The notes under the pieces: generated by a model | What the model was told of the DNA's origin: nothing | What the model saw: only the letters and a program-made list of their open reading frames with translations | Databases searched by the model: none | Part shown: in pieces, positions 21,901-24,900 of the stretch | Layout: each line of letters begins with the position of its first letter | Numbering within the stretch: the first letter of the stretch is position 1 | Translations under genes and position numbers: made by a program | Source of the DNA: Owenia fusiformis | Taxonomy: Eukaryota; Annelida; Polychaeta; Sabellida; Oweniidae | Reading direction: 5' to 3' | Assembly: GCA_903813345.2 (NCBI GenBank) | Contig: CAIIXF020000001.1 | Span: 2,852,001 to 2,916,000, forward strand | Length of the DNA: 64,000 nucleotides

Positions 21901-24900
21901 AAATTGTGAAAATAGTAGTGCAATTCATTTTATAGCTACGCAGTATGCCTTAAACATTTCCCAGACCTATATATTTTGAAATTATCCTTTTAATACTGAG
22001 TCCCCAGCATTCATAAAAAATGGTGTTCAAGATACACAGATGCAAATTATTTTTGCATCTTGGAAGCCAGGCAGTATCTGTGTGATTTTATAAAAATTCA
22101 GGAATGTTCTTCAGATGAGAGCCCCCTCTAAATATTGGGTGCGGAGGTACGTTTATGGAGCTCCTCCGCACCCAATATTTAGAGGGGGCTCATATCTGAA
22201 AAACATTTCCGAATTTTTATTAAATCACACAGATACTGCCTGGCTTCCAAGATGCAAAAATAATTTGTATAGATAGTGTACCTTGAACACCATTTTTTAT
22301 GAATGCTGGGGACTCAGTATTAAAAGGATAATTTCAAAATATATAGGTCTGGGAAAGGTTTAAGGCACACTGCGTCGCTATAGAATGAATTGCGCTACTA
22401 TTTTCACAATTGTATTGATATTTGGTGTCAAATACACATATCTTGGTATATTTGAAGTCCCAAAACGGCTTAGTTTCAGAAATATCCCAAATTTAAATTC
22501 AAAAACGACCGTTAGCTCCGCACCCTCCGCTCATTTGCTCCGCACCCAATATTTCCCACAGGCTCTGTCTGCATAGGGTGTAAACACAAACACAAAAAAC
22601 ACTGATTTCGACCTAATCCCTTAGAGATTTTATTCTACATGTAAATCATGTCAAAATCATTCATGCATTACAATGTTGGTGTATAAATTTATTGTGATTT
22701 TGATTAGATTTGATTAGAGACGCAAAGCAAAATGAAAACTTCCTCCCAAATGTAGTGATACAGAATTACAGAATCTTATAGCTAATAGCATGAAGTGACT
22801 TATTCATAAATGAAAGCATAAATAATGATGGTATGAACAGGGGTGCTAATCGCACAGCGTAACTTCTGATACATACAGAATTTACAATTTACGTTCACCA
22901 CCCCTGAGTAGTATTATATATGGACCATGTATACCTACCCCTCGCCAAGCTTCCCAAGCAGGTCAAATACTTTCTCTGGGGGTTGTTGTAAGCTTTCTTC
23001 ACTAAGCCGGTTTAGTCGACTGTCGCTATGTAGAACAATAGAACACGTGGTACTAATGACAAGCAACAATGAATGCAATGCAAGCTGATGCGGGGATTTG
23101 ATATGCATGTGTCTGGTTAAAACTGTATACAATTTTGAAAAAAATACTTAATCGGGCGGGCACCGGCTGATGAATCGGAGCAAATGTGACTCAGGCATTA
23201 CTGTCTTATCATATACAATATAAATTATTCATAATTTGTATAAATGGCTATAATATATATTATAATTTTTATTAAGGTGGGTATATGTTTTAACAAGACA
23301 CGTGCTTACATTAGGCTCCAAACTGGCTCATAATTATAGCATTGCATTTAGTCTCTGTTTACCAATCCCATTCCCCCACCTATTCTCCCCACCATAGGGA
23401 AGAACAGGAGGGATAGCGACAAGTGAGGGACCAAATACAAGACTACCTGGGTTATCTGGGAACTATACCTACAGCAACACATATGTATTAAGACTCATCT
23501 AGGTATTATGTAGACTTGCATCGAATCTCCCATGAATTCCCCTACTTACCCCCTACCTACCCCCTATGGATCTCACACTCTGAGATATGCGGGTAGAAGG
23601 AGGGGGGGTGGGGGATCACAGGGGCTTGAGGCAAGCCTATGTATTTCCATAAGACACACAAACAGATGGCAAGATGTATCTTAATACAATCTTAATGCAT
23701 GAAATGCCAGTTCTGAGATGTGAATTCTATTGCCAGTCAAAATATTAAAGTGTATAGTAAAACCTGTCATTTCACAATTTAGTGCATTTCAACATCCTGT
23801 TTAACGAATATCCCTCTACCGAATGCGCATGACAGCAGATTAGAGGCTGATGGCACCAAAATGAAGTTCCAGGTTTTGAAATCATCATCTACTTCACAGG
23901 CAATTTTTGTATACAGAACTTATAAAATTGACATCTCAAAAATGTTTCATGAATGAGTTACTGAATATTGGTAGATGAACTAATGAACGCATTTGAGACA
24001 TGGTGGTATATACAGTGATATACCAAGATTCTCGAATCAAGAGTCAATATATTTAGTATCTTACAGATGTAAATAATGAATCAAATGCATAATTCACATG
24101 TACCAAATCCATCGTCTTAGTCAGACAATAAAATGTGCTGTAATATACTTTATTGTGGATGAATGTAATAAATGACGTTATGAGGATGACGCAAGCATAA
24201 CATAACAAAACAGAACACATAACATGAAAACAGTTGTTTACATGAGTAGCAATGGTAAACCCAAAACATGCATTCTTCACATAGGTTTAAATGCGAACAG
24301 TATCTAAACTAACTCCAAGTTAAAATGGAAAATCTTAATTTTTTGCAAATTGTAGATGGATCATTTTGTTTCAAATCATCTGTTTCCATTACTACTTACG
24401 TAAGGTCATGAGCATGATGCATATTTATATCACAATGACAGGTCCCCTACATACCCTCTTCCTATTTTACATATTATATCAAACACCTCATCTGGTGGTT
24501 GCGCTAAGTTCTGATCACTTAACTTTTTCAGCTCACTAAATAGAAAACAATGACTTATGTAACATTTATTTACAACAAAGAATGCAATATGCACTTAATT
24601 ACATTCAATATCAAATAATCATGTCATATAGTACATGTATATCACATCCAAATTTGCATATACTTACTCCATTGAAAGAAATTAAATGAAAAACTAAAAA
24701 TTGAGCAAATTCAACTTCACAAAAAGCATAAATCTACAGTCAGTTGGTATATAATCAGCTTCACGTGTTGCGGCCTTACTTCTGCTGAAATAAGATGGAC
24801 TATTAAAAGCTGCTCAGGAATGGGCCTCATCCTGCAACATCTGTATGTTATAAATACAATCAAAGTCCCATGTATATGTTAATAGCATTACCACATAGGG

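What the first reader, a model, noticed from the sequence alone, without database searches (positions are those of the whole stretch)
22939..24535. Duplicated, probably mutually exclusive exons recoding the glycine-rich loop of the Hippo kinase
Two exons of exactly 81 nt, 1.4 kb apart, share both splice phases and encode two versions of the MST segment leading into the ATP-binding loop: canonical ...[10 protein letters not shown] (22939-23019) and diverged ...[10 protein letters not shown] (24455-24535). Both splice in frame from the same exon 1 (AG|T = Ser) to the same exon 3 (GG|G, SYGSV). Each keeps the structural glycines while surrounding residues change, including Glu to Arg in the loop. 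That is what is expected of an isoform switch altering nucleotide handling or regulation. I know of no such alternative exon in vertebrate STK3/STK4.
Basis: partly seen in the sequence, partly recalled or inferred. Interest (0 to 1): 0.87.

Follow-up and report, generated by a model that had tools for sequence, protein, structure and literature searches.

The report
Hippo kinase with two swap-in exons
A worm's Hippo growth-control kinase gene carries two old, both-maintained versions of the exon that starts its ATP-binding loop, so it probably makes two kinases by alternative splicing, a known trick (seen in the kinase FYN) in a gene where we came across no earlier report of it.

Summary
On the minus strand an MST/Hippo gene has two phase-matched 81-nt exons (2A 24535-24455, 2B 23019-22939) between exons 1 and 3. 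Each completes the same kinase N-lobe: KIGRG|SYGSV or KLGEG|SYGSV. A genome search with the 2B peptide found only these two places. The copies differ at 35 of 81 nt; synonymous sites are saturated, yet both stay open and MST-like. With 2A simulated as neutral, 0 of 9000 runs were open with the observed similarity score. So: an old tandem exon duplication, both copies under purifying selection.

Mutual exclusivity is the best reading but not shown. Joint inclusion and double skipping stay in frame. 2B has a second acceptor AG (87 nt). A docking/selector RNA structure was tested without support. Donors of exons 1, 2A and 2B lack the +4 A that the nine donors of exons 3-11 have, which fits regulated splicing. 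Altered nucleotide handling is conjecture. FYN exons are a direct precedent. The genome looks annelid, perhaps Owenia (not proven). Verdict: real; new member of a known kind.

The parts
28225..28256 (-). MST/Hippo exon 1, coding part: start codon and 10 full codons ([10 protein letters not shown] + AG|); donor GAG|gtatga
24455..24535 (-). Exon 2A (diverged version): [28 protein letters not shown]; acceptor ttttctatttag|, donor AGG|gtatgt
22939..23019 (-). Exon 2B (canonical version): [28 protein letters not shown]; donor GGG|gtaggt
23020..23025 (-). Six nt between two acceptor AGs of exon 2B (catag|CGACAG|); use of the upstream AG gives an 87-nt exon with Ser-Asp added, in frame
20367..20547 (-). 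Exon 3, common to both forms: [24 protein letters not shown]... (rest of glycine loop, catalytic Lys)
20057..20119 (-). Exon 4 (kinase domain)
19652..19816 (-). Exon 5 (kinase domain, HRD and DFG motifs)
19158..19263 (-). Exon 6 (activation loop, APE)
16075..16136 (-). Exon 7 (kinase domain)
15746..15883 (-). Exon 8 (kinase domain)
10542..10646 (-). Exon 9 (end of kinase domain, linker)
9875..9953 (-). Exon 10 (linker, GTM motifs; weak tblastn match)
6865..6999 (-). Exon 11 (linker, GTM motifs). The SARAH exon lies beyond the window at G000:C1:2851021-2851179; whether further exons lie between was not worked out
24573..24588 (-). ATTGCATTCTTTGTTG, shared intronic 16-mer 38-53 nt upstream of exon 2A (candidate splicing element, unproven)
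23064..23079 (-). ATTGCATTCATTGTTG, the same element 45-60 nt upstream of exon 2B (counted from 23019)
24267..24272 (-). TGCATG in the intron downstream of 2A (+182); RBFOX-like by recalled motif, a lead only
22662..22667 (-). TGCATG in the intron downstream of 2B (+271); a lead only

Best explanation
The gene is the MST/Hippo kinase, apparently the genome's only one. Its exon 2, which encodes the N-terminal lead-in, strand beta-1 and the first two glycines of the ATP loop, was duplicated in tandem long ago. Both copies have been kept as alternatives, spliced one at a time between exon 1 and exon 3. The cell thus makes two full-length Hippo kinases that differ only within one 27-residue segment: a canonical one (2B, KLGEG-SYGSV) and a variant one (2A, KIGRG-SYGSV). 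Shown here: duplication, phase compatibility, open and MST-like coding in both, selection on both. Inferred: one-at-a-time inclusion, probably set by trans-acting splicing factors acting on weak donors of exons 1, 2A and 2B. Conjectured: that the swap tunes ATP-loop dynamics or an N-terminal contact rather than switching catalysis off.
For: Same length, phase and splice-site type, and homology: the three criteria for mutually exclusive exons in PMC3228551 (passages). Only two matches to the 2B peptide in the genome search. Differences by codon position 11, 5, 19 (third-position excess p=0.0085); synonymous divergence saturated. With all 35 differences placed neutrally on one copy, 108 of 20000 runs stay open with at least 12 identical residues. 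With 2A neutral and 2B constrained, 0 of 9000 runs are open with the observed BLOSUM score, and 30 of 9000 are open with the observed identity. Three residues of 2A match human MST2 where 2B does not, six the reverse (hand count), so 2A is not a decayed 2B. 2A keeps residues needed inside a kinase lobe (VFD, K, GxG), which need not be kept if it were only an N-terminal add-on. Donors of exons 1, 2A, 2B lack +4 A (0 of 3) against 9 of 9 donors of exons 3-11 (Fisher p=0.0045; the feature was picked after seeing the sites). Precedent: FYN.
Against: No transcript evidence could be reached. No frame-based enforcement: joint inclusion and double skip are open. The exons are 1,435 nt apart, far more than the under 50 bp between donor and branch point taken as steric interference in PMC5740500 (passage). 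Docking/selector pairing not supported. No relative of the locus was found in the two collections searched, which are viral and prokaryotic, so conservation of 2A in other animals is untested. dN/dS cannot be given as a ratio because dS is saturated.
Confidence: 0.75

Rival explanations
1. 2A is a cassette exon added in front of 2B. Joint inclusion gives the canonical kinase with a 27-residue N-terminal extension; 2B is constitutive.
For: Joint inclusion is in frame and leaves the 2B beta-1 strand and glycine loop directly joined to exon 3.
Against: 2A keeps VFD..K.G.G, the kinase-lobe residues, which an N-terminal extension would not need.
Confidence: 0.1
2. Alternative promoters: 2B is used from its own first exon, lying between 2A and 2B, and 2A from exon 1 (or the reverse), so the choice is made by transcription start, not by splicing.
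For: The exons sit right behind the start codon, where alternative first exons are common (recalled); 1.4 kb between them would suffice.
Against: Both exons match exon 1's phase and complete the same Ser codon; 2B has an acceptor with a pyrimidine-rich stretch. CpG o/e between 2A and 2B (23001-24500: 0.31-0.60) is not higher than around exon 1 (28001-29000: 0.68-0.70). No search for a first exon between them was made.
Confidence: 0.1
3. 2A is a relict, unused or rarely used exon copy on its way to decay.
For: 2A is the copy further from human MST2 (13 of 26 against 16 of 26 identical); no RNA evidence.
Against: Open frame, both splice sites and MST similarity kept at saturated synonymous divergence; neutral simulations reject it (0 of 9000 by open frame plus BLOSUM; 30 of 9000 by open frame plus identity; 108 of 20000 in the one-copy version).
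Confidence: 0.05
4. Mutual exclusion is run by competing RNA structures (selector sequences upstream of each exon pairing with one docking site). This is a mechanism within the best explanation rather than an alternative to it.
For: A 16-mer (15 of 16 identical) lies 38-60 nt upstream of both exons; 3 of its 5 exact genome copies are in this gene on its coding strand. A joint docking candidate (22501-22560) beat all but 1 of 60 shuffles in a first run.
Against: In a larger run the same joint site is reached by 13 of 400 shuffles, and it lies in a near-identical, repeated foldback element (41 matches at 99-100% listed, itself included), so it is probably a recent insertion; each 16-mer region alone pairs no better than shuffles (32 and 27 of 60 reach it).
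Confidence: 0.07

Closest known systems
FYN mutually exclusive exons (FynB/FynT)
   Different: Tyrosine kinase; the exons also cover the SH2-kinase linker; tissue-specific isoforms are documented there. Here the gene is MST/Hippo and transcripts are unseen.
Human STK3/STK4 (MST2/MST1)
   Same: Same protein family: both N-lobe versions align without gaps, kinase exons match, SARAH exon present.
   Different: Vertebrates have two genes (recalled), each with KLGEGSYGSV; in this genome one gene with two exon versions was found. That vertebrates lack the alternative exon is recalled, not tested, beyond the absence of the names.
MST3/MST4 (STK24, STK26; GCK-III)
   Same: 2A's loop KIGRG resembles their KIGKG (recalled); the 2A N-lobe scores slightly higher than 2B's against STK24 (74.4 against 72.3 bits).
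   Different: Both versions are far closer to MST1/2 (about 150 bits); the shift is small.
CAMK2D (and, recalled, JNK and p38) duplicated exons in the catalytic domain
   Same: Homologous exon substitution next to the predicted ATP site in CAMK2D (PMC9741552, passage).
   Different: Different kinase families and positions in the fold.

Membership tests
Mutually exclusive exon pair (criteria of PMC3228551) | About the same length | tested here: met
   81 and 81 nt, or 81 and 87 if the upstream AG of 2B is used
Mutually exclusive exon pair (criteria of PMC3228551) | Compatible splice sites and conserved reading frame | tested here: met
   AG/GT, phase 2-2; both translate through exons 3-11
Mutually exclusive exon pair (criteria of PMC3228551) | Sequence homology | tested here: met
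   12 of 26 identical, BLOSUM sum 74 over 26 residues (84 over 28); best unrelated candidate -5
Mutually exclusive exon pair | Transcripts hold one exon and not both or neither | not testable with these tools
   No RNA reads available; both-in and both-out stay in frame
MST/Hippo kinase (STK3/STK4 orthologue) | Kinase domain closest to STK3/STK4 among solved kinases | tested here: met
   The ten best chains are STK3/STK4 for both N-lobe versions (98 aa); exons 3-9 match MST2
MST/Hippo kinase (STK3/STK4 orthologue) | C-terminal SARAH domain in the same gene | tested here: met
   68% identical exon at C1:2851021-2851179, same strand, just past the window; the only match of that search. That it is spliced to exon 11's gene is inferred from place and strand
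Docking/selector competing RNA structure | One docking site complementary to a selector at each exon | tested here: inconclusive
   Tested only with the shared 16-mer regions as selectors: no complement within 3 mismatches between exons 1 and 3; joint site 1 of 60, then 13 of 400 shuffles, inside a repeated element

The most novel reading that the evidence does not exclude
An ancient annelid (or wider lophotrochozoan) splice switch gives a single-copy Hippo kinase two ATP-loop versions with different activity or regulation, doing by exon duplication what vertebrates did by gene duplication (MST1 and MST2), and thereby setting Hippo output by stage or tissue.
Probability: 0.3. Interest if true: 0.75.

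Novelty: new member of a known kind. Interest (0 to 1): 0.5.

Why it matters
Hippo kinases are usually thought of as regulated after translation, by dimerisation, scaffolds and phosphatases (recalled). A splice choice inside the ATP loop of what looks like the only Hippo kinase would add a transcript-level control that could be read in existing RNA-seq. It would also give a natural pair of kinases, differing within one 27-residue segment, for testing what the loop and its lead-in do.

Tried and rejected
Docking/selector RNA pairing: a shared upstream 16-mer was found (4, 2 and 6 of 2000 shuffles reach the score for 60-, 80- and 100-nt flanks; 17 of 1000 for 200 nt). No complement with up to 3 mismatches lies between exons 1 and 3 (15 matches in the window on both strands against 11.6 expected). 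Single-selector duplex energies equal the null (32 of 60 and 27 of 60). The joint site is reached by 1 of 60 shuffles in a first run and 13 of 400 in a larger one, and it lies in a repeated element. Not supported; other selectors were not tried.

Exon-flank duplexes: six pairs tried; up2A-dn2A is reached by 2 of 40 shuffles and up2A-up2B by 4 of 40, the other four by 15 to 28 of 40; not followed.

Third exon copy between exons 1 and 3: none seen. U12 or steric exclusion: no sign by eye, 1,435 nt between the exons. Downstream flanks of 2A and 2B: no similarity (698 of 1000 shuffles reach the score).

RBFOX-like TGCATG downstream of both exons: P about 0.008 for both, but one of ten motifs tried; kept as a lead only.

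dN/dS as a ratio: dS saturated (NG86 returned no usable dS; ML estimate 23.9; two methods failed). The first Fisher count of donors was entered with 8 donors by mistake (p=0.006) and redone with 9 (p=0.0045).

Relatives elsewhere: viral contigs (3 pattern stretches, 0 confirmed) and genome contigs (81 stretches, 0 confirmed). Rfam: no match at gathering score in the window. Structure prediction was not run: the spliced isoforms are not contiguous translations of the window.

Taxon: mollusc haemocyanin family no match, but no control rang, so this shows nothing; erythrocruorin-linker family (an annelid family, recalled) three matches on C6, one with a stop inside; a cox1 probe found nothing, without control. 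The assembly has 498 Mb in 525 contigs; hits lie beyond 26 Mb on C1-C10 and beyond 3 Mb on C12 (C11 not seen). This is near the 505.8 Mb and 12 chromosome-scale scaffolds reported for Owenia fusiformis (PMC9977687, passages). Consistent, not proof.

Literature: eight searches on kinases, Hippo and exclusive exons in the open library: 15 of 910 papers listed; 0 papers; 15 of 196 listed; 4; 1; 6; 4; 15 of 32 listed; 'hippo' also matched hippocampus. None of the listed titles and abstract starts reports duplicated exons in a Hippo kinase; three lists were capped, so this is weak evidence of absence. One search was Owenia plus Hippo pathway (0 papers); one search was on FYN (3 listed). Beyond listings, passages (no whole text) of PMC9741552, PMC5740500, PMC3228551, PMC6071210 and PMC9977687 were seen.

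Full report
What is there. On the minus strand the window holds most of one MST/Hippo kinase gene. Exon 1 carries the start codon (28256-28225). Then come two candidate exons 2 (2A 24535-24455, 2B 23019-22939), exon 3 (20547-20367) and eight further exons down to 6999-6865. A SARAH exon lies just beyond the window's first base, at G000:C1:2851021-2851179 on the same strand, and is the only match of the SARAH search; exons between exon 11 and SARAH were not worked out. With exon 2A the joined exons read [43 protein letters not shown]..., with 2[44 protein letters not shown]...; everything downstream is shared. Both N-lobes hit human STK3 and STK4 first (best chain 150.3 bits for 2A, 152.9 for 2B).

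More than chance. A scan for open, phase-compatible AG..GT/GC stretches of 75-87 nt between exons 1 and 3 gave 25 candidates. Three are 2A and the two lengths of 2B; the best of the other 22 scored -5 against 84 for 2A versus 2B. In the genome, the 2B peptide finds itself and 2A only. A search with the 2A N-lobe gave 8 matches at E up to 0.01: exon 3, exon 2A, and six other places at 32-47% identity, which I take for other kinases; that search did not list 2B. So there is no second MST gene or allelic contig in sight, with the caution that only the best candidates are scored and withheld stretches read N.

Age and selection. The copies differ at 35 of 81 nt: 11, 5 and 19 at codon positions 1, 2 and 3 (third-position excess p=0.0085). 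Synonymous sites are saturated, so dN/dS cannot be given as a ratio (dN 0.41, NG86). If all 35 differences had fallen neutrally on one copy, it would carry a stop in 77% of runs, and 108 of 20000 runs would be open with at least 12 of 26 identical residues. If 2A drifted neutrally while 2B was constrained (three strengths, 3000 runs each), an open 2A with at least the observed identity appeared in 13, 6 and 11 runs. An open 2A with the observed BLOSUM similarity, to 2B or to human MST2, appeared in 0 of 9000. The simulations start from 2B as a stand-in for the ancestor. By hand count, 2A alone agrees with human MST2 at three residues and 2B alone at six; 9 of the 14 differences between the copies have positive BLOSUM62 scores. 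Both copies are thus maintained coding exons that have diverged for a long time.

Is the use exclusive? The anatomy meets the three published criteria for mutually exclusive exons: length, frame with splice sites, and homology (PMC3228551, passages). But nothing in the frame forces it. Both-in is open and would place 2A's residues as a 27-residue extension before an intact canonical loop; both-out is open and loses the first half of the loop. What argues for replacement rather than addition is that 2A has kept residues a kinase lobe needs (VFD, K, GxG).

How the choice may be made. Donors of exons 1, 2A and 2B read gtatga, gtatgt and gtaggt; the nine donors of exons 3 to 11 all have +4 A (Fisher p=0.0045; the feature was chosen after seeing the sites). 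That pattern fits weakened, regulated sites. A 16-mer, ATTGCATTCWTTGTTG, lies 38-53 nt before 2A and 45-60 nt before 2B; it is the best local alignment of the two 200-nt upstream flanks, and the downstream flanks show no similarity. It has 5 exact copies in the genome (2 for the reversed control), 3 of them in this gene on its coding strand; the third (87-102) is in an intron with no known role, and 202 places match with up to one mismatch against 14 for the control, so near-copies are common. I tested whether these act as selectors for one docking site and found no firm support: the only joint site is reached by 13 of 400 shuffles and sits in a repeated foldback element. TGCATG follows both exons (+182, +271); with ten motifs tried this is only a lead. 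I therefore favour trans-acting factors on weak sites, as inference.

What the swap may do. Residues of exon 2 form the lead-in, beta-1 and the first two loop glycines; the rest of the loop and the catalytic lysine are in exon 3 (placement in the fold from knowledge of kinases). 2A has Arg for Glu between the two glycines and Cys for Gly in beta-1. Both versions fit the Pfam kinase profile about equally (53.8 and 54.5 bits), and basic residues at that loop position are common in STE20 relatives (recalled; 2A scores slightly better than 2B against STK24, 74.4 against 72.3 bits). I expect two active kinases with tuned ATP use, autophosphorylation or N-terminal contacts, not an active/dead pair. 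This is conjecture.

Compared with what is known. Tandem duplicated, mutually exclusive exons over the ATP-site end of a kinase domain are known in FYN, with conserved ATP contacts (PMC9741552, passages). The same paper notes that most substitutions in such pairs are conservative (passage), as here. Two human surveys do not mention STK3 or STK4 in the main text. Eight searches of the open library on this theme listed no Hippo case (listings only, three of them capped). So this is a new member of a known kind, in a gene for which I came across no earlier report.

Which animal. The genome (498 Mb in 525 contigs) has erythrocruorin-linker matches, an annelid family by recall, and its size and large contigs resemble the reported Owenia fusiformis assembly of 505.8 Mb and 12 chromosome-scale scaffolds (PMC9977687, passages). 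This matters because RNA-seq series exist for that worm (passages), so, if the species is right, the switch could be checked at once.

Noticed in passing
window 21733-22580: An 848-bp near-perfect foldback (arms 305 nt at 97% and 108 nt at 94%) in the intron between exon 2B and exon 3. One arm has 41 matches listed at 99-100% identity, itself included (40 of 959 candidates scored), so it looks like a young, abundant repeat.
   Followed up: partly
window 6933-7148, minus strand: Three copies, 88 nt apart, of a 40-nt piece of exon 11 (starts 7148, 7060, 6972); an acceptor-like TAG with the start of exon 11 is seen at two of the repeats (before 7087 and before 6999). Use of the upstream acceptor would shift the frame, since 88 is not a multiple of 3.
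   Followed up: no
window 87-102, minus strand: A third exact copy of the 16-mer ATTGCATTCTTTGTTG, in an MST intron about 0.9 kb before the SARAH exon; 5 exact copies were found genome-wide.
   Followed up: partly
window 16188-18606 and 12399-13579: Tandem arrays inside MST introns: 162-nt units between exons 6 and 7 (16188-16900 and 17265-18606), and about 47-nt units between exons 8 and 9.
   Followed up: no
window 28276-28284, minus strand: A two-codon upstream frame (ATG GGC TGA) 28 nt before the MST start codon.
   Followed up: no
window 26744-27590: A second inverted-repeat pair (arms of 36 and 65 nt, 94% and 85% complementary) in the intron between exons 1 and 2A.
   Followed up: no
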